Part shown: positions 1,979 through 59,920 of the stretch, one piece after another
Numbering within the stretch: the stretch's first letter is position 1
Layout of the letters: every line of letters begins with the position of its first letter
Assembly (NCBI RefSeq): GCF_007981265.1
Contig: NZ_CP034363.1
Coordinates: 2,294,001 to 2,358,000, forward strand
Direction: 5' to 3'
DNA length: 64,000 nucleotides
DNA from: Pantoea sp. CCBC3-3-1
GTDB taxonomy: Bacteria; Pseudomonadota; Gammaproteobacteria; Enterobacterales; Enterobacteriaceae
Position numbers and translations under genes: made by a program
Notes under the pieces: model-generated
Told to the model about the DNA's origin: nothing
What the model saw: the letters and a program-made list of their open reading frames with translations, nothing else
The model's database searches: none

Positions 1979-2938
1979 ATGGCTAAGACAAACGGAAAAC
2001 GCCAAAAAGGATTTAGCGGTACGCCACACGATTCCGCGTTTAAATGGTTTTTGACTCAACCTGATATTGCTAAAGATTTTATGGCACTACATTTACCCGC
2101 AGAATTACAAAGCATTTGCGATCTTAATACGCTGAAGCTGGAGTCAGGAAGTTTTGTGGAGGAAAGCTTACGCCTCTGTTACAGCGATATACTTTATAGT
2201 GTAAAAACGACGGAGGGGAACGGCTATATTCACGTCCTTATCGAGCATCAGTCCACGCCCGATCGGCATATGGGCTTTCGACTTCTGCGTTATGCAGTCG
2301 CTGCTATGCAGCGCCATCTTGATGCCGGATACAGTCAGTTGCCTCTGGTGATCCCGATTTTATTTTACACCGGCAGGCAGAGTCCTTATCCGTACTCAAC
2401 AAACTGGCTGGCGGAGTTTGATAATCCTGCGCTGGCTGAGAAAATATATACCGCTTCGTTTGCGCTGGTCGATGTCACCGTAATACCTGACGACGACATT
2501 ATGTCACACCGCAGCATGGCGGCGTTGACGCTGTTGCAAAAACATATTTACCAGCGTGATCTGATCGATATGGTAAACCGATTAGCCGACGTGCTTCTCA
2601 ACGGATATCTGACGGGACAGCAGCTGGTTTCGCTGATAAACTACCTTATTCAGGCAGGTGAAGCTTCAAATGCAAAAATATTCATACGCGAGCTGGCACA
2701 GCGACTGCCACAACATAAGGATGAACTGATGACTATTGCACAGCAGCTTGAACAGGCGGGCATCGAAAAAGGGATCGAAAAAGGGATTCAGCTTGGCGAA
2801 CAACGCGGCATCGAAAAAGGACGCAAAGAAGAAGCGTTAAAAATCGCCCAGGCCATGCTGAAAAACGGTCTCGAACGCGCCACTATTTTAAAATTAACCG
2901 ATCTTACCGAAGGCGATCTCGCTCAGATCCACCACTGA
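1979..2938 (+). CDS. Rpn family recombination-promoting nuclease / putative transposase (copy 1)
   Basis: This 319-residue protein has the YhgA/Rpn layout. It starts TPHDSAFKWFLTQPDIAKDFM, followed by a PD-(D/E)XK-type nuclease core with LKLESGSFVEE (around residues 52-62), DILYSV and YIHVLIEHQS, then RLLRYAVAAMQRHL. The C-terminal 70 residues hold a charged tail with short GIEKG repeats. Rpn proteins in E. coli promote RecA-independent recombination and are DNA endonucleases. The gene is single, has its own terminator, and has a paralogue in this window at 45900-46874. Base composition is AT-richer than the flanking metabolic genes, consistent with a mobile, fast-evolving gene. Confidence 0.9.
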   Translation: MAKTNGKRQKGFSGTPHDSAFKWFLTQPDIAKDFMALHLPAELQSICDLNTLKLESGSFVEESLRLCYSDILYSVKTTEGNGYIHVLIEHQSTPDRHMGFRLLRYAVAAMQRHLDAGYSQLPLVIPILFYTGRQSPYPYSTNWLAEFDNPALAEKIYTASFALVDVTVIPDDDIMSHRSMAALTLLQKHIYQRDLIDMVNRLADVLLNGYLTGQQLVSLINYLIQAGEASNAKIFIRELAQRLPQHKDELMTIAQQLEQAGIEKGIEKGIQLGEQRGIEKGRKEEALKIAQAMLKNGLERATILKLTDLTEGDLAQIHH

Positions 2939-8090: not shown

Positions 8091-8191
8091 CAGAGCCTCC
8101 TTTGGAAAGTGCGGTTCGGCAGTTCAGTGGCGCCAATAGGGAATGGGTGAGACAGGACATCGGTAACAGTCATCAAAGCCTCCTCTGAAAG
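8027..8191 (-). repeat. Imperfect tandem duplication of the OYE 5' end (83-bp period)
   Basis: Copy 1 (8027-8109) and copy 2 (8110-8191) align along their whole length with scattered base changes and one single-base length difference. Each contains an RBS (AAAGGAGG or AGAGGAGG), a start codon and the first 20 or so codons of the old yellow enzyme. The differences include several codon changes, so the copies are old or derive from two related genes. Confidence 0.85.
8090..8173 (-). pseudogene. 27-residue leader frame, duplicated N-terminus of the old yellow enzyme
   Basis: Starting at the ATG at 8173, after AGAGGAGG, the frame reads MTVTDVLSHPFPIGATELPN and ends seven residues later. This is a diverged copy of the old yellow enzyme N-terminus, MTATDVLFRPFRIGAMELPN. 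Its TGA shares a base with the ATG of the intact gene (TGATG), an arrangement that allows translational coupling. It could be the residue of recombination between two paralogues or a fortuitous leader. No function is claimed. Confidence 0.7.
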
Positions 8192-8505
8192 GATCTTACT
8201 GGAAAGACCCTGACGGTATCCGAAATATATTAAGGTGACAAGAACGCACTTAGAGTCGCCCAGGTATATGCAAGTAAACCGCATGCCTGAGGGCAATCAC
8301 AATACTTCTACCGTTATAGAGCGGCCTGTGCGGCATTCTGCGCCAGGCTGGATGGGACCTTCCGAATTCGCCGAAAAATCTGCCGGTTGCCAGAATATGC
8401 AGCCAGACTGAAGCCGGTTATTCTTGATTATGAATGGATCACATACGGGGAGCGGGTCCACAGGGTCACTAACCGATATAGTGGATGTATTTAATCTTGA
8501 GGGCA

Positions 8506-8806
8506 GGTCACTGCAACTGGAAATCAAAATACGGTGGTATGGAGGCCAGCGATATCAGAAAGATGTGATTGAAAAAAACTCTGAAGCCAGTAGCAAAGCG
8601 GGAGCTGATAAAGCATGTAGTGCAGACTTTTTCTCTCAGCGTCAGACAGGCCTGCCGCTTTTTTCTCTGAGCCATACTGTTTATCATTACCGCCCCGACA
8701 TGTTGCGCGATGAAGCGTTTTCACACCTTTAACGTTGTGGATGGCTATAACCGCTCTAAGCGCTGGCGAATGAAATTGACCTGAATATACCGGCACCGCA
8801 TTTTAT
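8506..8806 (+). pseudogene. Decayed IS3-family (IS407-like) transposase orfAB remnant
   Basis: Pieces of a typical IS3-family transposase pair are readable in order but in different frames. First comes NWKSKYGGMEASDIRKM (OrfA, from 8515). Next is DVIEKN (end of OrfA, about 8562), then KRELIKHVVQTFSLSVRQAC (8596 onward). After a one-base shift comes FSLSHTVYHYRPDMLRDEA. After a large internal deletion comes RFHTFNVVDGYNR, and after a further frameshift ALANEIDLNIPAP (to about 8800). At least one large deletion and three frameshifts are needed, so the element is dead. Terminal inverted repeats were not identified. Confidence 0.8.
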
Positions 8807-8876
8807 AAAATTTAAAAATGCCCATCCGCAAATGAGCACTTTATTTTATTGCGATCGGATAAGTGATGTCACAGCC

Positions 8877-9884
8877 TTACCATTTCACCCCGTTACGCTG
8901 CCAGGCCAGCGTCCGATCGCGCACGCTGAACAATAACGTAATGACCGAGGAAAACAGCACGGCCATCACAATCAGCGCGCCATACATATTGGCATAGGCC
9001 GCCCAGCCCTGCGCCCACTGCAAATACCATCCCAGGCCGGACTTCACGCCCATCATTTCAGCGGCGACCAGCACCGAGAACGATGCGCCCAGTCCCATAA
9101 ACAGCCCGACAAAAACGTGCGGCAGTGACGCGGGCACCGCCACGCGCAGAATTAAAAAGAGGTTGCTGGCACCCAGCGTGCGGGCCACGTCATAGTAACG
9201 GCTGTCCACGCTGCTCACGCCCGACCAGGTCAGTACCGTCACCGGGAACCAGGTTGCCAGAGCAATCAGGAAAATGGCAGCGGAGAAGCTGGAAGGGAAA
9301 AAGTAGAGCGCCAGCGGCAGCAGCGCCGTGGACGGCACCGGCCCGAGGAAACGCAATACCGGATGCACCCAGTAGCCCAGACCCCGCGACCAGCCGATGG
9401 CAACGCCGGTAACAAAACCGCTCAGGCTGCCGAACAGAAAACCCAACGCCAGCAGCCGTAGCGAATTAAGTACGCTGTCGCCAAGGCGCGGCCAGTCGGT
9501 GGCGTAAGCTTCAATCAGCGCACGCGGTGGGGCAAAAAACGGCGGCGGCAGGAGAGCCAGTTTTGCCGTCACCAGCTCCCAGATGCCGATCAGCACGGCC
9601 AGCGCCACCAGCCAGCGCGCGCCACGGCGCAGCGGATCGGCCAGCAGGCGTAGACCGGCCTTGCTGACTAAAGCCGCCACCGACAGCACGCTGGCAAAGA
9701 ACACAAACAGGTGATGCGTTTCATTTACAAAGCGCGGCGGTGCAAAGCCAACCTGCTTATCCGGCCAGACAATCATTAATGCGGCCAACGCCCACCAGGC
9801 AACGATTGCCAGCAATAGCGTTGGCGTCAGTACCGGCTGCTCCTGGCGGGCAGGATTCAGATGGTCAAGCGTTTCACTGGACAT
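8877..9884 (-). CDS. Sulfonate/nitrate/taurine-type ABC transporter permease
   Basis: This 335-residue inner-membrane protein has an N-terminal extension with two extra hydrophobic segments and then the SsuC/TauC-like permease domain. The EAA-type loop reads YYDVARTLGASNLFLILRVAVPASLPHVFVGLFMGLGASFSVLVAAEMMG, a strong family match. It follows the substrate-binding protein by 12 bases on the same strand, and the ATPase is encoded divergently at 11129. With the cysteine-synthase-like gene behind the ATPase, an organosulfur substrate is likely, though not shown. Confidence 0.88.
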   Translation of the reverse strand: MSSETLDHLNPARQEQPVLTPTLLLAIVAWWALAALMIVWPDKQVGFAPPRFVNETHHLFVFFASVLSVAALVSKAGLRLLADPLRRGARWLVALAVLIGIWELVTAKLALLPPPFFAPPRALIEAYATDWPRLGDSVLNSLRLLALGFLFGSLSGFVTGVAIGWSRGLGYWVHPVLRFLGPVPSTALLPLALYFFPSSFSAAIFLIALATWFPVTVLTWSGVSSVDSRYYDVARTLGASNLFLILRVAVPASLPHVFVGLFMGLGASFSVLVAAEMMGVKSGLGWYLQWAQGWAAYANMYGALIVMAVLFSSVITLLFSVRDRTLAWQRNGVKW

Positions 9885-45899: not shown

Positions 45900-46874
45900 A
45901 TGTCTGACAGGAAAGCAAAGGGCCGCAGGAACGCGAGCCCGACACCGCACGATCTCGCCTTTAAACAGTTTCTGACCCATCCCGCTACCGCACGGGATTT
46001 TATGCAGCTGCATTTGCCCGCGGAGCTGCAGGCCGTCTGCGACTTCAGCACTCTTAAGCTGGAGTCCGGCAGCTTTGTTGAGGAAACGCTTCGCCCCTAT
46101 TTCAGCGACGTGCTCTACAGCCTGAAAACCACGACCGGCGATGATGGCTACGTCCACGTTCTTATCGAACACCAGTCCACGCCGGACAGGCACATGGCGT
46201 TCAGGCTTCTTCGCTACGCGGTGGCGGCCATGCAGCGCCACCTTGACGCCGGGCACAAAAAGCTGCCGCTGGTGATACCGGTGCTGTTTTATACGGGAAA
46301 GCGCACTCCCTATCCCTATTCCACCCGCTGGCTGGATGAATTTAATCATCCCGGGCTGGCCGGTAAGCTTTACGGCGGTGAGTTTCCGCTGGTTGACGTC
46401 ACGGTGATTTCCGACGACGAGATAATGGGCCACCGCAGCATGGCGGCCCTGACGCTGCTGCAAAAGCATATTCACCGGCGCGACCTGGCAGAGCTGCTGG
46501 ACAGGCTGGCGACCCTGCTGTTGAGAGAACCGGTTACGGGACAACAGCTGACATCGCTGATAAACTACCTGATACAGACGGGTGAAACGGCAGACGCAGA
46601 GGCGTTTGTACGTGAACTGGCACAGCGTGTGCCGCAACATGGAGACGCATTGATGACCATCGCACAACAGCTTGAACAGAAGGGCATTGAGAAGGGCATT
46701 GAAAAAGGCATTGAGAAAGGCATTGAGAAAGGCATTCAGCTTGGCAGGCAGGAAGGCCGTAACGAAGGTAAACTCGAAGTCGCCCGTACCATGTTGCAGA
46801 ACGGCCTGGATCGCAATATCGTCATGAAAATGACCGGGTTAACTGAAGACGATCTGGCGCAAATCCGCCATTGA
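45900..46874 (+). CDS. Rpn family recombination-promoting nuclease / putative transposase (copy 2)
   Basis: This 324-residue protein closely resembles the one at 1979-2938: TPHDLAFKQFLTHPATARDFMQLHLPAELQAVCDFSTLKLESGSFVEETLRPYFSDVLYSL, then YVHVLIEHQSTPDRHMAFRLLRYAVAAMQRHLDAG. The tail holds four or more tandem GIEK units (from about 46684) against fewer in copy 1. Those codons are a 12-bp tandem repeat, so copy number can change by slippage. The GC content is higher than in copy 1. It lies just downstream of the Cre-like gene, convergent with it. Confidence 0.9.
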   Translation: MSDRKAKGRRNASPTPHDLAFKQFLTHPATARDFMQLHLPAELQAVCDFSTLKLESGSFVEETLRPYFSDVLYSLKTTTGDDGYVHVLIEHQSTPDRHMAFRLLRYAVAAMQRHLDAGHKKLPLVIPVLFYTGKRTPYPYSTRWLDEFNHPGLAGKLYGGEFPLVDVTVISDDEIMGHRSMAALTLLQKHIHRRDLAELLDRLATLLLREPVTGQQLTSLINYLIQTGETADAEAFVRELAQRVPQHGDALMTIAQQLEQKGIEKGIEKGIEKGIEKGIQLGRQEGRNEGKLEVARTMLQNGLDRNIVMKMTGLTEDDLAQIRH

Positions 46875-46976
46875 TGGTTCGTTGCCTGACCGTCAGCCTG
46901 TAATCACCTCATACACCAGCGTCACTGGAGATAATTGCGCTGTTTTCAGGTAATCTCAGCACGTTTACTTTTTAGC

Positions 46977-47007
46977 ACCACTTTGTTTTTTTGTGCAGCA
47001 AAGTGGT
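46977..47007. terminator. Hairpin between Rpn copy 2 and the Cre-like gene
   Basis: ACCACTTTG (46977-46985) and CAAAGTGGT (46999-47007) form a perfect nine-base stem with a loop that starts with a run of seven T. It lies between two convergent genes. Confidence 0.55.
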
Positions 47008-47017
47008 TATCAATAAA

Positions 47018-47047
47018 AATCCCAATCCCAATCCCAATCCCAATCCC
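47018..47047. repeat. Hexanucleotide microsatellite (AATCCC)5
   Basis: Five exact tandem copies of AATCCC end 11 bases before the stop codon of the Cre-like gene. It lies downstream of both flanking genes. Perfect hexamer arrays are prone to slippage. Confidence 0.9.
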
Positions 47048-47058
47048 AGCGCTATGCT

Positions 47059-48096
47059 TTATTTCCCGCCATGCCGGGCTTCCATTAGATCGACCATCGC
47101 ACCCTGATGTGCATCTACGTTTCGTATATAGCGCATCAGCGTTTCCGGTTTCTTCCAGGTACCTTCCTGCATAATCTGCGCTACAGCGTAGCCTTGCTTT
47201 GCCATATCCTGAGCCGCGCCAACACGTGCGCTGTGGCCGCTCCAACCCCGATAACGATTTTTATTGGCTTTAGCGGGCTGAAGAGGTCCGGCAATTTGCC
47301 ATGCCTGAATAAAAATAGCCTCAAGCGCTGGCGTAGTGAGCGGACGGTCGCAGGTCACTATCACCTGATTACTTCGATGCACCGGGCCAAACAAAAAGGC
47401 ATCGGGTTCACCCGCCAGCCCGGCACTTTCAATCCATTCGGTTAGCCGCTGGCTGGAAAGGGTGCTCAGAGCTTTAATCAATCCACCCGTTTGCACAATG
47501 GTTTTTGTCCAGCCAACGTCCAGAATTATTCGCCCATCTTCCGCGCGCGTAATATCGCCAACCCGCAGACGGGCCAGTTCACTAATACGCAACAGCGTAC
47601 CGTAAGCAACATGCAGAAAAGCCAGGTTGCGCATTTCCTTTTTACGTGACGAGTTCCTCCAGCGCTCATCCAGCATCATCAGGTCTGCCAGACGAAAAGG
47701 AACGGCCTGGCCGGTACGTTCACCGGCGATCACTGCGGTTCGATTAATCTTTTTAATAGTACGAAAAACCAGGGGGGAAACCGTAGGGGAGATCAGACCT
47801 GCGTTGCGATGCAGCATTGCAATCAGTGAAGCATGTGTGGCGATGGTAGAAGAGGCCCGGCCTGATGAATGCAGAAAGCCAAGATAGTCACGCAAATCAG
47901 CCGACTACATTGGCAAAAAGCTGCGGGCATTATCTGCCGCCCAGCGAAAGCAAATGCGCATTACGCTGAGTAGTTGTCGCCAGGTATTGGCAGAAAAAGC
48001 CTCTTTATCTTGTACAAATTCTTTCAGCCGCGTAGAAATCGCGTCATCAGATGAAATCAGGGGCAGCAGGTCGTCAGCTGCTGTTATTTCAGGCAT
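47059..48096 (-). pseudogene. Cre-like tyrosine recombinase interrupted by one in-frame amber codon
   Basis: Read through a TAG at 47907-47905, the frame is 345 codons, against 343 residues for P1 Cre, and is collinear with Cre throughout. Matches include AFSANTWRQLLSVMRICFRWAADN, RDYLGFLHSSG, RNLAFLHVAYGTLLRISELARLRV, GWTKTIV, WSGHSARVGAA and MRYIRNVD. Counting the amber as residue 64, the catalytic residues are R170, K198, H288, R291, W314 and Y323. The Cre equivalents are R173, K201, H289, R292, W315 and Y324. The amber falls where Cre has Glu67, and a GAG to TAG change would explain it. Without suppression the C-terminal 281 codons are not made, unless restarted from the TTG at 47895, which would lack most of the N-terminal domain. 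Confidence 0.88.
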
Positions 48097-48132
48097 AACG
48101 TGTCCAATAAATACTCTGTTTAACAATCGATC

Positions 48133-48191
48133 GCGCTACGTAAATTCTATAGAAAAAGCAGGGGAGTTACCCTAAAGAATTCACGTAGCGC
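48133..48191. repeat. 20-bp dyad upstream of the Cre-like gene
   Basis: GCGCTACGTAAATTCTATAG (48133-48152) and its near complement (48172-48191, two mismatches) flank a 19-bp spacer. It lies between the lox-like site and the recombinase start codon, in the promoter region. It could be an operator, a recombinase accessory site or an mRNA leader hairpin. Confidence 0.75.
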
Positions 48192-48318
48192 TACCGGTTG
48201 GCTGTTTATAATTTAACCGCCCATGAGCCGGCATTAAAAATGTTCACGACCGAAACAAGTTAGCTAGCGATCTTTTCTGGCGCAGAATTTTATCATAATT
48301 GCTCAACACCAGGCCATT

Positions 48319-48352
48319 TTAACTTTATATAAGTCCCATTATATAAAGTTAA
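48319..48352. other. loxP-like recombination site (13-8-13)
   Basis: The left arm TTAACTTTATATA (48319-48331), spacer AGTCCCAT (48332-48339) and right arm (48340-48352, the exact reverse complement) make a 34-bp site with the loxP architecture. The arm agrees with the loxP arm ATAACTTCGTATA at 10 of 13 positions. The spacer is asymmetric in its middle, as needed for directionality. The symmetry in fact extends one base further on each outer side. It lies about 220 bp upstream of the Cre-like start, similar to the loxP-cre order in phage P1. Confidence 0.75.
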
Positions 48353-48624
48353 AGCGGTAATTGTTCAAAAGCTAAACAAAAATCGCAGCCGTTGGAGGGG
48401 TTACAGCGCAAGTGTCAGCGCGGATCAGGATAGGGCAATACAGGGATTTGCCGTTCACTATGCAGAAAGATGCCTGGGAACAGTGCGCTACTGGTAAGAT
48501 TATATAGATCTTTCATGATCGCAGAAGCATGCGATCCGCTCAGTATCTAAGCATATACAGGCCTGCTGGCAATCAGCGTGTCGTGCTTCAGAGGGCTACC
48601 TTCTGTAAACCGAATACTCAGATT

Positions 48625-49074
48625 TTAACTGCTCCAGGTACCCACGATATTATTGAGTACATAGGCGTTCTCATCATAATCTATCAGGCCCGGAGCGATA
48701 AAACTGCCGAGCAGAGCTTCACCATCATCGACAAAGAAAATAAGAAGAAGGTTATCATCGAGATAGAGATGAAATTTGGTTGTCAGCCTTATCATATTCG
48801 TAATGCTGTACGAGGATAAATAACCGAAATCGTGCGGGATATTTTCTTTAATAATCTGCGTTAATTGACCGGTAGTGAATGAAAATGGCCAGCTATTAGT
48901 AAAATTCAGGGAAATGATATTAATATTTAACTGTGAGTCTATCGTTGCATTTGCATAGAAATTTGTATTCTGATCGGAGCCATTAAAAAGTGCCTTCGCA
49001 TAAGTTTGCATATTTATGGGCGCGACAGGTATAAGGGGGATGGTATTTCCCAGTAACGTCATCAATGTATCCAC
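48625..49074 (-). CDS. Hypothetical protein, 149 residues
   Basis: I do not recognise this protein. It begins at GTG (49074), eight bases after a strong GGAGG; an ATG four codons later is the alternative. The sequence has beta-rich, hydrophobic-alternating stretches (NINIISLNFTNSWPFSFTTGQL, FHLYLDDNLLLIFFVDDGEALLGSFIAPGLIDYD) with no clear signal peptide. It is AT-rich and sits next to the lox-like site, on the opposite side from the recombinase. A plus-strand frame overlapping it (48529-48819) is shorter and lacks an RBS. Confidence 0.6.
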   Translation of the reverse strand: MDTLMTLLGNTIPLIPVAPINMQTYAKALFNGSDQNTNFYANATIDSQLNINIISLNFTNSWPFSFTTGQLTQIIKENIPHDFGYLSSYSITNMIRLTTKFHLYLDDNLLLIFFVDDGEALLGSFIAPGLIDYDENAYVLNNIVGTWSS

Positions 49075-49243
49075 AAGCTATACCTCCGGGATCATCATCC
49101 CGCATCAGGAAGACAGCTGCCACGGACAGCAGAACAGGTGGCCGTGGGGCGATAATGATAAGCATATACTCGGTTAGTAACAAAGCCAGTTAACCCCTAA
49201 AACAGGGGCTAACCAGCAGGATCGCACGAAGGCAATCTACATT

Positions 49244-49474
49244 TTAATGCGCGGGTTGTTGCTGCTGCTGTTTCTCTTGCTCTTTCTTCTCTTTTTTATT
49301 AGCCATATGGTGGCCAACTGCACAGCCTGCCGCCGCGCCAGCCACGCCGTGATGCTTAATGTGTCCAGCCACGCCGCCAACTGCAGCCCCTTTGATGCAG
49401 CCTTTTGCCTGTACCTGAGACGTGGCAGAAAGCAGCAGACCGAAGGTAACCGCTAAAACTGATAATTTGCGCAT
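49244..49474 (-). CDS. Small secreted glycine-zipper-like protein
   Basis: This 76-residue protein has a signal peptide (cleavage near VQA) and a mature part GCIKGAAVGGVAGHIKHHGVAGAAAGCAVGHHMANKK. This is a glycine-zipper motif with small residues every four positions, two cysteines and four or five histidines. The tail is charged and glutamine-rich (KKEQEKQQQQQPAH). Similar small proteins are common in enterobacteria and sit in the envelope; their function is mostly unknown. The RBS is AAGGGAT. Confidence 0.8.
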   Translation of the reverse strand: MRKLSVLAVTFGLLLSATSQVQAKGCIKGAAVGGVAGHIKHHGVAGAAAGCAVGHHMANKKEKKEQEKQQQQQPAH

Positions 49475-49628
49475 AACTCTTATCCCTTAAAAATTGATGT
49501 AAATATGTTATTGATTGGTAAGAGAGAATAGCGTGCTTTAAAGGAAAGGCCAGCGTATGGCCTTTCTTTCAGAGCAGTCTGCAATTCAAAATATTTCAGG
49601 CGGCGCTTGCCTCAAAGTGGTAAGGCGT

Positions 49629-50726
49629 TTACTGATCAAGCTCGCGTTCTTTGATGTCCGCAATCGGACTCAGGATGTCGCGATCGAACTCGTTTAAAGG
49701 CTGATCAGCTTTAACCCGCTCAGGCCAGTCATGGTTTGCCAGAGCGCCACGACCGAGTGCGATAAGATCTGCCCCCATCGCCATCACCTCTTCTGCGCGA
49801 CCAGGATCGTGGAGGGCACCGTTGGCAATCAAAGTGAGAGAAGGGGCATATTGATGCGCGAGCTCAACCAGCGAACGCTCGTCATCGGCAAATGCAGGCT
49901 CCCAGGCTTCATACTCCGTCACATGGATGAAGTCCACGCCAGACTTTTCCAGCAGCGAAAAGATTACCCGGGCATCTTCCACGCCTTTTCCCCATTTATG
50001 CACGAAGTCATTCACTTTGCCCTGCGAAATACGAATACCAACCGGAACGTCTGCGCCGAGACGCGCACGAACAGCCTTAATCACTTCAAGGCCAATGGTC
50101 ATGCGTCCAGCCGTATCGCCGCCCCATCTGTCAGTGCGCAGGTTACTGTATTCAGTAAAGAACTGGTCGAGTAAATAGCCGTTTGCACCGTGGATTTCCA
50201 CGCCATCAAACCCGGCCTCATGGACAGCACGCGCCGCTGCATCCGCGAAATTGGTGATGATTTCTTCAATCTCGCTGTCACTCAGCTCACGGGGTAACGG
50301 GTATTGTCCTTCTCCGCGATAAAACGGCATCTGCTCCCCTTTAGGGCGGATTGCAGAGGGCGCTACCGTCTCAGTCACATAATGGTTTCCTTGTGACAGC
50401 GCGCCAGCGTGCTGGATTTGAGCAAAAATAGCGGCTTCCTGGCGGTGGACAGCATCGGTTATCTCGCGCCAGGCATCGACCTGCGCAGTGGAAGTAAGGC
50501 CCGCCTGAAAAGCATAGGTCTGTGACCAGGCCCGATCGATATAGATGCCTTCGGTGATAATCAGGCCAAAACCGCCACGCGCCAAACTCGCGTAGTAGCG
50601 TTTCATTTTTTCACTGGCGCAGCCATCTTCGCTGGCCGTTACACGCGTCATTGGCGCCACGGCAAGACGGTTTTTCAAACTGATGTTGTTGCCTTTCAGG
50701 GCGGTAAATAAAGGAGAGTGATTCAT
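49629..50726 (-). CDS. Old yellow enzyme family NADH:flavin oxidoreductase
   Basis: This is a 365-residue OYE protein with LKNRLAVAPMTRVTASEDG, IFAQIQHAGALS, GVEIHGANGYLLDQFFTEYSNLRTDRWGGDTAGR and DLIALGRGALANHDWPERV. Compared with the copy at 6975-8090 it belongs to another subgroup, and its composition matches the host. It is divergent from a LysR-type regulator 113 bp away, which probably controls it. Substrates of such enzymes include enones, quinones and nitro compounds. Confidence 0.92.
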   Translation of the reverse strand: MNHSPLFTALKGNNISLKNRLAVAPMTRVTASEDGCASEKMKRYYASLARGGFGLIITEGIYIDRAWSQTYAFQAGLTSTAQVDAWREITDAVHRQEAAIFAQIQHAGALSQGNHYVTETVAPSAIRPKGEQMPFYRGEGQYPLPRELSDSEIEEIITNFADAAARAVHEAGFDGVEIHGANGYLLDQFFTEYSNLRTDRWGGDTAGRMTIGLEVIKAVRARLGADVPVGIRISQGKVNDFVHKWGKGVEDARVIFSLLEKSGVDFIHVTEYEAWEPAFADDERSLVELAHQYAPSLTLIANGALHDPGRAEEVMAMGADLIALGRGALANHDWPERVKADQPLNEFDRDILSPIADIKERELDQ

Positions 50727-57607: not shown

Positions 57608-59920
57608 ATGAAACAGAATAATAAGGGTATTTCACCCTATAGCGGATCGGCAGGGGGTTGGGGCGCACTGAAAGCGGTGGCCGATGCCATTCGCGGCCAG
57701 ATGGCCGTGAAGCAGGATGTGATCGCGCTGTTCAAAGTTAACCAGCCGCAGGGCTTTGACTGCCCCGGCTGTGCCTGGCCCGACCCGCGTCATGGATCCT
57801 CGTTCGAGTTCTGTGAAAACGGCGCAAAGGCCGTTTCGTGGGAAGCAACCAGCAAGCGCACCACGCCTGAATTTTTTTCCGCGCACACCGTTAGCGAGCT
57901 TTGGTCGCGCAGCGCTTACGAGCTGGAAGGCGAAGGGCGACTCACGCATCCCATGAAGTATGATGCCGCCAGCGATACTTATCAGCCCATAGAATGGGAA
58001 ACCGCGTTCCGGGAAATCGGCGAAAAACTGCAAGGCTACGATCCCGACAGCGTGGAGTTTTACACCTCCGGCCGTGCTTCCAACGAAGCCGCTTTCCTCT
58101 GGCAGCTTTTCGCTCGCGAATATGGCACGAATAACTTTCCCGACTGTTCAAACATGTGTCATGAGCCGACCAGCGTCGGACTGCCGCAGTCAATTGGCGT
58201 TGGCAAAGGCACCGTTGAACTGGACGATTTTGACCATTGCGATCTGGTGATCTGTATCGGTCACAATCCGGGAACGAACCATCCTCGCATGCTCGGCACG
58301 CTGCGTGAAGTAGCTAAACGCGGCGCAAAAATCGTGGCGATCAATCCGCTGCGTGAACGTGGCCTTGAGCGTTTTACTTCGCCTCAAAGCCCGGTCGAAA
58401 TGCTGTCGCTCAGCTCCACCGAATTAGCGTCAACCTATTATAAAGTGCGGGTTGGCGGCGATGCGGCGGTGTTAAAAGGGGTGATGAAATGCCTGCTCAA
58501 AATGCATGATGAGGCGCTGACAGCAGGGAAACCTGGCGTGGTGGATGAGGCCTTTATCCAGCAGCACACGGAAGGCTTCGCCGCCCTTAAAACCGATCTC
58601 GACGGAACGGACTGGCAGCATATTGAGAAAGTCTCCGGGATGACGTTCGCCGAAATCCAGAACATCGCACACCTCTATGCCTCGGCAGAAAAAACCATCA
58701 TCTGTTACGGCATGGGCATCACCCAGCACCAGTACGGTACGCAGAACGTGCAGCAAATCGCTAACTTACTGCTTATGCGTGGCAACATCGGCAAGCCTGG
58801 CGCAGGCATTTGCCCGTTACGCGGCCATTCCAATGTGCAGGGCGATCGCACCGTTGGCATCACTGAAATTCCGCCGCAAAGCCTGCTCGACAGTCTGGAA
58901 AACGTCTTTGGCTTCAGGCCGCCGCAAAAGCACGGGCACGGTGCGGTCAGTGCGGTTCAGGCGATACGCGACGGGCGCTCTAAAGCGTTGCTCTGCCTGG
59001 GCGGTAATCTGGCGGAAGCCATTTCCGATCCGCAGGTAACGTTTGCGGCCATGCGCAAGCTGGATCTGGTGGTGCATATGGCCACCAAGCTCAACCGTTC
59101 ACATCTGCTGCTGGGTAAGCATAACTATCTGCTGCCGGTGCTGGGCCGTACCGAAACGGATCGGCAGGCATCCGGCGAACAAAGCGTAACCGTTGAAGAT
59201 TCCATGTCGATGGTGCATGCGTCACGCGGTACGCTGAAACCCGCTTCGCCATTCCTGAAATCGGAACCGGCGATAGTGGCGGGACTGGCTAAGGCGACGC
59301 TGCCCGCGACGCGGGTTGAGTGGGACAAAATGGTCGGCGATTACAGCGTTATCCGGGAGGCTATTGAGGCGGTGTTTCCGGCGTTTAAGGATTTTAATCA
59401 GCAAATTCTTCAGCCTGGCGGTTTCCGTTTATATAACGCCGCGTCGGAAAGGAAGTGGCTGACGCCATCAGGGCGCGCGCAGTTTAAGGTGATGCAGGGC
59501 ATTAATGAAGATCCGCGCTCGCTAAAATGTCACGACCTGGTGCTGACTACGCTGCGTAGCCACGATCAGTACAACACCACGCTTTACGGTCTGAACGATC
59601 GCTATCGCGGCGTCACCGGCAGACGTGACGTGCTGTTTATGGCAGCCAGTGAAGCTGAAAAACGGCAGCTTCGGGTGGGAGACAAGGTCAATATGATTGC
59701 GCTGGATCCGGATGGCAAACAGACTTCACGGCGACTGAATAGCCTGACGATAGTGGTGTATGACATGGCGCCCGGCTCCGTCGCGGCTTACTACCCGGAA
59801 GCTAACGTACTGGTGCCGCTCGACAGTTTTGATACCGAAAGCGGCATTCCGGCCTATAAAAGCATTCCAGTGGCACTGGAACCCGCCGAGGTGCTCGAAA
59901 CGGAAGGCGTTATACGCTAG
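57608..59920 (+). CDS. FdhF/YdeP family molybdopterin oxidoreductase
   Basis: This 770-residue protein of the formate dehydrogenase alpha/YdeP type has an N-terminal [24 protein letters not shown] cysteine motif for an iron-sulfur cluster. Molybdopterin-domain stretches follow: [41 protein letters not shown] and [26 protein letters not shown]. The end ([16 protein letters not shown]) is the dinucleotide-binding domain. E. coli YdeP belongs to the EvgA acid-resistance regulon, but its substrate is unknown. It is cytoplasmic, since no Tat signal is seen, and stands alone. Confidence 0.92.

What the first reader, a model, noticed from the sequence alone, without database searches (positions are those of the whole stretch)
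48319..48352. A 34-bp loxP-like site next to the Cre-like gene
The site has two identical 13-bp inverted arms (TTAACTTTATATA) around an asymmetric 8-bp spacer (AGTCCCAT). That is the exact loxP geometry, and 10 of 13 arm positions equal those of loxP. It stands about 220 bp upstream of the recombinase, the same order as loxP-cre in P1. Chance is unlikely given arm identity, length, base agreement and location. Together they look like a diverged, possibly orthogonal Cre/lox pair.
Basis: partly seen in the sequence, partly recalled or inferred. Interest (0 to 1): 0.88.

Follow-up and report, generated by a model that had tools for sequence, protein, structure and literature searches.

The report
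Orphaned chromosomal Cre/lox-type recombination site
This looks like a genuine DNA recombination site of the Cre/lox family, left on a bacterial chromosome beside a recombinase gene that is interrupted by a stop codon; it belongs to a known kind, but it comes with a second, unexplained DNA element found beside most of the relatives examined, phage P1 included.

Summary
In detail: the arms are perfect over 15 bp (48318-48353), expected about 7e-5 times in 64 kb. It is very probably a true lox-type site. A comparable site lies upstream of the recombinase in 75 of 80 related loci, phages P1, D6 and JK004 included. The inner 32 bp recur unchanged on two plasmids beside recombinases 57% and 67% identical. 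Arm position 8 follows recombinase residue 259 in 67 of 67 sites with agreeing arms, but on only 2-3 changes in the tree. The recombinase has an amber stop at codon 64 and otherwise looks constrained. No partner site was found in the genome. Best reading: a plasmid-type dimer-resolution system now on the chromosome and probably orphaned. Panto/pox and Dre/rox are published relatives, so it is a new member of a known kind. Less expected is a 61-bp element of fixed geometry (48132-48192), found upstream of 75 of 80 recombinases against 0 of 80 in reversed sequence, together with lox in 73. It is conserved as two words 41 bp apart, not by base pairing. Its function is unknown.

The parts
48318..48353 (.). 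lox-type site: 15-bp perfect inverted arms, 6-bp asymmetric core GTCCCA (13+8+13 reading: 48319-48352). In the gene's orientation: TTAACTTTATATA-ATGGGACT-TATATAAAGTTAA
   Evidence: comparable sites upstream of recombinases in 75 of 80 loci
48132..48192 (-). 61-bp companion element: inverted half-sites GCTACGTGAATTCT / AGAATTTACGTAGC offset by 41 bp, with CCCCTGC in the middle; lies between the lox site and the recombinase start
   Evidence: near the gene in 69 of 80 loci at a strict cut-off; within 2.2 kb upstream in 75 of 80, 0 of 80 in the same stretches reversed, 1 of 65 downstream; with lox in 73 of 80; no covariation between arms
47059..48096 (-). Cre-family tyrosine recombinase gene, 345 codons, interrupted by one TAG; six Cre catalytic residues present; Pfam PF00589 in the part after the stop
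   Evidence: 42.9% identical to P1 Cre and 46.2% to D6 Dre, 53-82% to 62 genome contigs relatives
47905..47907 (-). in-frame amber stop (codon 64)
45900..46874 (+). Rpn-family gene (PF04754) tail-to-tail with the recombinase; an Rpn gene also lies next to the recombinase in G007, G012, G014 and G026, there in the same direction as it

Best explanation
The 34-36 bp repeat is the recombination site (lox) of the Cre-family tyrosine recombinase encoded 222 bp away. Inferred from Cre: one subunit binds each arm, two sites synapse, strands are exchanged across the asymmetric 6-bp core, and two sites in direct order excise the DNA between them. Many relatives are on plasmids or phage-plasmids, where the likely job, as recalled for P1, is to resolve multimers into monomers before division. 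In this genome the pair lies on a 5.0-Mb contig (the chromosome), no second site was found, and the recombinase has an amber at codon 64 that would remove the start of its DNA-binding domain. The site is therefore most likely an orphaned but still usable target: a recombinase from a plasmid or phage-plasmid with the same arms and core could act on it in trans. Shown: site, conservation, gene, stop, no partner found. Inferred: binding, exchange, ancestral dimer resolution, present inactivity.
For: Chance expectation 7e-5. Lox-type sites upstream of homologues: 58 of 62 genome-contig loci and 75 of 80 loci in all; the scan gave 71 upstream hits against 3 hits in the reversed 923 kb. The inner 32 bp are exact on a Serratia marcescens element with a terminase gene and a Rouxiella plasmid, each beside a recombinase gene, 57.0% and 66.6% identical to the window's. 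In the seven same-spacer loci compared (7 of 14), 31-32 of 34 site positions are identical while 70-bp flanks are 46-59% in a gapped alignment. Residue 259 is P when arm position 8 is T and R when it is C in 67 of 67 sites whose arms agree there, the best of all alignment columns (next 0.34 on the same scale); the window has P259 and T8. Residue 259 is a published specificity residue (PMC4957104 and PMC7438526, passages). Catalytic residues are present. dN is 0.14-0.24 against saturated or near-saturated dS, and 0 of 93 invariant columns are changed. 4,028 plasmid records match the recombinase, 120 of them at 60-80% identity.
Against: No binding or recombination was shown. 5 of 80 loci lack a recognisable site (L004, L009, L010, L031, L090), and one of the 75 (L081) is a candidate with quite different arms, picked by symmetry. 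The 259/position-8 association rests on 2-3 changes on the tree (sign test p 0.5), and 4 further sites have unequal arms, all with P259. Near-duplicate loci were not collapsed. In the plasmid blast of the 36-mer, 22 of 50 records are Enterococcus hits (the listed ones at E 0.3-4); the one region I read (L107) has no tyrosine recombinase in its table, so weak matches to such a palindrome do occur by chance. A plasmid origin of the chromosomal segment is unresolved: two replication families gave nothing on C1, and thiG, a marker I recall for large Pantoea plasmids, lies 2.1 Mb away. The amber could be a sequencing error or be read through.
Confidence: 0.88

Rival explanations
1. The system is not dead: the amber is a sequencing error, a minority allele or is read through, and the chromosomal pair is a working Cre/lox kept for a host function.
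For: Apart from the stop the gene looks constrained and the site has perfect arms. Three relatives of the genus (G007, G012, G014) keep an open recombinase frame with a site on contigs of 1.08-2.88 Mb.
Against: Three other loci (L058, L061, L104) also have short, interrupted recombinase frames with a site kept, so loss of the enzyme before the site recurs. Only one site was found in the genome, so nothing in cis to recombine except replicated or dimeric copies.
Confidence: 0.15
2. The chromosomal site works as a docking point: a plasmid or phage-plasmid with an intact recombinase and the same core integrates and excises here.
For: Identical inner arms and core occur on a Serratia marcescens element with a terminase gene and on 3 of 5 viral contigs found (L232-L234), these with a recombinase about 58% identical. 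The same genome holds a 96-kb contig with its own Cre-like gene and phage-like genes.
Against: The resident C4 recombinase has residue 259 = K and a different candidate site. No element flanked by two such sites is present, and no strain comparison was possible.
Confidence: 0.12
3. The palindrome is an operator or a transcription terminator, not a recombination site.
For: It is intergenic, AT-rich and symmetric in the arms; a regulator could bind it.
Against: The 6-bp core is not palindromic in any of 74 sites counted, 13+8+13 geometry is kept across genera, and annotated loxP and rox fall into the same series. The distance to the start codon is mostly 138-303 bp but 352, 416 and 867-873 bp in five loci.
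Confidence: 0.04
4. Chance palindrome.
For: None found.
Against: Expected 7e-5 per window, plus recurrence beside homologues.
Confidence: 0.005

Closest known systems
Panto/pox (Pantoea sp. aB; Karimova et al. 2016, PMC4957104)
   Same: Cre-like recombinase from Pantoea with an adjacent 13+8+13 site, shown to recombine it; the paper says Panto is 41% identical to Cre and that pox and rox arms differ by one base (passages read)
   Different: The sequences of Panto and pox were not available here (figures and supplements not held), so identity to the window's pair is unmeasured; Panto is intact and tested, the window's enzyme is interrupted and untested
Dre/rox of phage D6 (AY753669, MF356679)
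   Same: 46.2% identical recombinase, site 151 bp upstream of the gene, arms 11 of 13 equal, residue 259 = P
   Different: rox arms have A at position 10 where the window has T; different core (ATTGGCAT); no 61-bp companion element found within 2.2 kb upstream
Cre/loxP of phage P1 (X03453)
   Same: 42.9% identical recombinase, same geometry, 10 of 13 arm positions, same companion element between site and gene
   Different: R259 with C at arm position 8; outer spacer base G rather than A; intact and on a phage-plasmid; 416 bp between site and gene
Serratia marcescens plasmid record NZ_OW849140 (L101)
   Same: Inner 32 bp of the site identical, recombinase adjacent
   Different: Recombinase 57% identical over 342 residues, open frame, on an 84-kb element with a terminase gene; companion element weak (8 of 28 mismatches)

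Membership tests
Cre/lox-type systems | Tyrosine recombinase with Cre's catalytic residues R173, K201, H289, R292, W315, Y324 | tested here: met
   (in one search the window row was aligned with X at the stop)
Cre/lox-type systems | Intact enzyme with both domains | tested here: not met
   TAG at codon 64; the listed open frame after it starts at codon 68
Cre/lox-type systems | 34-bp site of two 13-bp inverted arms and an asymmetric 8-bp spacer | tested here: met
Cre/lox-type systems | Site close upstream of the recombinase gene, and conserved with it in relatives | tested here: met
   58 of 62 genome-contig loci, 75 of 80 in all
Cre/lox-type systems | Arm sequence fits the specificity residue 259 | tested here: met
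   P259 with T8; 67 of 67 sites with agreeing arms follow the rule, but 2-3 changes on the tree only
Cre/lox-type systems | Enzyme recombines two copies of the site without cofactors | not testable with these tools
   needs a bench assay
Panto/pox | Sequence identity to Panto and pox | not tested
   the sections read refer to figures and supplements that are not held
Plasmid multimer-resolution module | On a plasmid or phage-plasmid | tested here: not met
   window lies in contig C1 of 5,008,525 bp; many relatives are in plasmid records
ssDNA promoter (Frpo/ssi), considered for the 61-bp element | Stem pairing kept by selection | tested here: not met
   arm pairing 0.853 observed, 0.852 expected from column make-up over 65 distinct sequences; similarity to published Frpo sequences was not tested
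Rfam RNA families, considered for the 61-bp element | Match above gathering score | tested here: not met
   window 46500-50000: two sub-threshold matches only

The most novel reading that the evidence does not exclude
Natural lox sites of the Cre family are composite. Besides the 34-bp crossover site they carry, 44-178 bp away in 71 of 73 cases, a 61-bp element of fixed geometry: half-sites CGCTACGT-AA-TCTG and CAGAATTCACGTAGCG offset by 41 bp (about four helical turns). An unidentified host or plasmid protein binds it and either controls recombinase expression or steers recombination towards dimer resolution. It is present in P1 and JK004, stays with lox where a gene intervenes (L007, L062, L082) and where no recombinase was found nearby (L105, G026 C22), and also occurs away from lox, on E. 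coli plasmids and on chromosomes.
Probability: 0.5. Interest if true: 0.72.

Novelty: new member of a known kind. Interest (0 to 1): 0.48.

Why it matters
The site itself adds one orphaned member to a known family. The comparison it opened is worth more: 71 aligned natural recombinase/site pairs, which give predictions for arm recognition (residue 259 with arm position 8, residue 50 with position 10) and cores that could be tested as orthogonal tools. If the 61-bp companion element is real in function, one of the most studied recombination systems, Cre/loxP, has a conserved neighbouring control or accessory element that the P1 records read here do not annotate, and its binding protein can be sought directly.

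Tried and rejected
Chance palindrome and simple operator or terminator readings were rejected for the lox site. RNA hairpin or attenuator for the 61-bp element: the window's copy folds strongly as RNA (z -5.7), but there is no covariation and the spacing is fixed, so the fold follows from the inverted half-sites. Integrated large Pantoea-type plasmid as source of the region: a YdeP-family gene (57608-59920) is 84-86% identical to plasmid copies in the 12 rows listed, and three of those plasmids also carry the recombinase, but only these two genes are shared with the stretches compared at high identity and thiG is 2.1 Mb away, so it stays open. Empty-site comparison: the left flank matches G019 and G026 up to about 43252 and the right flank matches G018, G022 and G024 from 49639, but no genome examined spans both, so the junctions are undefined. 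Candidate site of the C4 recombinase: its 131-bp surroundings have no match in plasmids, so it stays a candidate. Different spacers in genomes with several copies: seen, not tested.

Full report
OBSERVATION. The 34-bp site is at 48319-48352 as described. The symmetry in fact runs to 15 bp on each side of a 6-bp core (48318-48353). It is the only perfect 13+8+13 inverted repeat in the window. From base composition, 15-bp arms are expected 7e-5 times and 13-bp arms 1.1e-3 times in 64 kb. The recombinase gene is 47059-48096 on the minus strand, 345 codons, with one TAG at codon 64 (47905-47907). 222 bp separate the site from the start codon. The open frame after the stop was used for the searches.

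THE GENE. After the stop the protein carries PF00589 and is 42.9% identical to P1 Cre and 46.2% to D6 Dre. The six Cre catalytic residues checked are present. In 62 loci of genome contigs the identity is 53-82%: Pantoea, Mixta, Erwinia, Chimaeribacter, Rahnella, Serratia and others. In the plasmid collection 4,028 records match, 120 of them at 60-80% identity. Against ten relatives dN is 0.14-0.24 while dS is saturated or nearly so, and none of 93 columns that are invariant in 69 other rows is changed in the window; four of six relatives put to the same count also show 0, two show 2 and 4. So the stop looks recent, or is an error. Three other loci have short, interrupted recombinase frames (L058, L061, L104).

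THE SITE IS A LOX SITE. The script counted 81 because L077 repeats L081; L105 was left out because it has no recombinase hit. The script searched for 13+8+13 repeats within 9 mismatches of the window's arms and with at most 4 asymmetric positions. 71 loci had one between -1300 and -150 of the match start. Elsewhere in the 923 kb there were 4 hits, one of them the JK004 site, and the reversed control gave 3. Adding L017 and L059 (seen but beyond the mismatch limit), JK004 (at -1733) and the symmetric candidate of L081 (other arms), 75 of 80 have a site. L004, L009, L010, L031 and L090 have none. Among the 62 genome-contig loci alone it is 58 of 62. Near-duplicate loci were not collapsed. Annotated loxP and rox fall into the same series.

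CONSERVATION OF THE CORE. In the gene's orientation the window's spacer is ATGGGACT. 15 of 74 spacers counted are this one, the window included. 71 of 74 start with AT, 74 of 74 end with T, and no 6-bp core is palindromic. A blast of the 36-mer against plasmids gave 50 records: the inner 32 bp are exact in two, a Serratia marcescens 84-kb element with a terminase gene and a Rouxiella badensis plasmid, each beside a recombinase gene. Those enzymes are 57.0% and 66.6% identical to the window's. Rahnella sikkimica matches 33 of 34 with an interrupted recombinase. 22 of the 50 records are Enterococcus; those listed have E 0.3-4, and the one region read shows no tyrosine recombinase in its table, so I take them as chance. 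In seven of the 14 other loci with this spacer, 31-32 of 34 site positions are identical while 70-bp flanks are 46-59% identical in a gapped global alignment, which I judge close to background. Of five viral contigs with the arms, three (L232, L233, L234) have the same core and a recombinase about 58% identical; L231 and L235 have other cores.

ARMS AND ENZYME. With 71 loci that have both a full-length enzyme and a site, I asked which alignment column best predicts each arm position. For arm position 8, Cre residue 259 predicts it perfectly in the 67 sites whose two arms agree: P with T in 38, R with C in 29; the next column scores 0.34 on a scale of 1. Four more sites have unequal arms, all with P259. 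The window has P259 and T8. Residues 43, 259 and 263 are the ones that Karimova et al. (PMC4957104, passages) and a follow-up (PMC7438526, passages) single out between Cre and Dre/Panto. On the tree these are only 2-3 changes, and two independent pairs cannot be significant, so this is consistency, not proof. Arm position 10 and residue 50 also agree, on two single exceptions.

GENOME CONTEXT. The window lies in a 5,008,525-bp contig. No second site was found in the genome with up to 3 mismatches to two patterns. A 96-kb contig (C4) carries another Cre-like gene, 43% identical, and phage-like genes. Its residue 259 is K; the best symmetric 13+8+13 repeat upstream of it is CCAAGGCAATATA-ACATCCAA-TATATGGCCTTGG, 1.9 kb away, unique in the genome. 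An Rpn gene is next to the recombinase here and in four relatives. The left flank is similar to two relatives up to about 43252 and the right flank to three others from about 49639, so the segment is accessory DNA with undefined borders. A plasmid origin is likely from the distribution of relatives but not shown.

THE 61-BP COMPANION ELEMENT. Between the site and the gene lies an inverted repeat (48132-48192); in one comparison (L003) this stretch aligns at 84% where the coding part aligns at 73%. A scan for its arms found it near the gene in 69 of 80 loci at a strict cut-off, with 8 other hits in the 923 kb and 1 in the reversed control. Allowing up to 8 of 28 mismatches and offsets from 34 to 49 bp within 2.2 kb upstream, 75 of 80 loci have it; the same stretches reversed give 0 of 80, and 2 kb downstream of the gene 1 of 65. 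73 of 80 have both lox and the element, 2 only lox (D6 and L103), 2 only the element (L010, L031), and 3 neither. The offset is 41 bp in 71 of these 73 and 42 bp in 2. The distance from lox is 44-261 bp, median 77. P1 has it (L095:166-226), overlapping the annotated pR1 promoter; the P1 records read list no inverted repeat there.

WHAT THE ELEMENT IS. It follows lox rather than the gene where a gene intervenes (L007, L062, L082) and where no recombinase was found nearby (L105; G026 contig C22, where a solo lox-like site lies about 85 bp from it). In viral contigs a pattern with a 20-30 bp gap found 89 stretches. In the 80 of these that I read, all 83 matches have a gap of exactly 25, and 73 hold a Cre-like gene; this is mostly P1 over and over, with 19 distinct cores. 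In 36 genomes of the genus, 21 have at least one copy and the reversed pattern none; several copies lie away from any recombinase and beside unrelated genes. In E. coli genomes a composed consensus gave 413 places, 401 on plasmids, but only 84 records cover 80% or more of it. Of five such regions read, four have the full element and one (L228) only the right half; a tyrosine recombinase gene lies within about 300 bp in two (L226, L228) and not in three. Over 65 distinct 61-mers the arms pair in 85.3% of cases, and 85.2% is expected from column make-up, so there is no sign of selection on pairing. Fixed offset without covariation points to a protein that binds two half-sites on one face of double-stranded DNA. 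Which protein, and whether it regulates the recombinase or acts in recombination, is not known. A full-text search for five core words found one paper, on phage T7 (listing only); a search for P1 cre regulation listed seven papers, none on that subject by title; Rfam has no match above threshold. Most subscription papers are not in the library, so the element may be described there.

MECHANISM. From the homology to Cre I infer: arms bound by recombinase monomers, synapsis of two sites, exchange across the 6-bp core, direction set by its asymmetry. The ancestral role inferred is resolution of plasmid multimers, as for P1 (recalled). Here the enzyme would lack its first part or be made only by read-through, so I think the site is an orphan. 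An intact enzyme brought in by a plasmid or phage-plasmid with the same core could still act on it; this is testable in a laboratory strain with natural intact relatives.

LITERATURE. PMC4957104: abstract, sections 4 and 13 and passages. PMC7438526, PMC11541004 and PMC7736820: passages only. A 2023 survey of Cre-type recombinases in Nucleic Acids Research (recalled; not held) may already include relatives of this pair, so I claim no priority for the site.

CHECK. One search was added as the missing control.

Noticed in passing
window 48132-48192: 61-bp fixed-geometry inverted-repeat element between lox and recombinase, shared with P1 and most relatives examined; function unknown.
   Followed up: partly
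G000:C1:2402388-2402442 and G000:C4:82912-82966 (L081 about 6413): Two further copies of the 61-bp element in the same genome; the C4 copy lies about 180 bp from that contig's lox-like repeat.
   Followed up: partly
L081:6198-6231 and 8145-9185 (contig C4): A 96-kb contig with phage-like genes in the same genome has an open Cre-like gene with K at residue 259 and a candidate site with very different arms; no similar site stretch in plasmids.
   Followed up: partly
G026:C22:57009-57040 and G007:C6:299853-299884: Solitary lox-like sites in relatives whose cores differ from that of the genome's main site.
   Followed up: no
G005, G011, G018, G022, G024, G034 (L117, L118, L120-L122, L136): Pairs of 61-bp elements about 1-3 kb apart without a recombinase beside them, flanking unrelated genes.
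   Followed up: partly
window 1979-2938 and 45900-46874: Two related Rpn-type genes in one window (the first by its match to the same Rpn regions); the second (PF04754) is inverted relative to the recombinase compared with four relatives.
   Followed up: no
window 46666-46761: Six-copy 12-bp tandem repeat at the 3' part of the Rpn gene.
   Followed up: no
window 57608-59920: FdhF/YdeP-family oxidoreductase gene 84-86% identical to copies on large Pantoea plasmids, three of which also carry the recombinase.
   Followed up: partly
L036 and L037: Pantoea ananatis LMG 2665 has two near-identical recombinase/site loci with the same core on two contigs; the other genomes that appear twice or more have different cores.
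   Followed up: no
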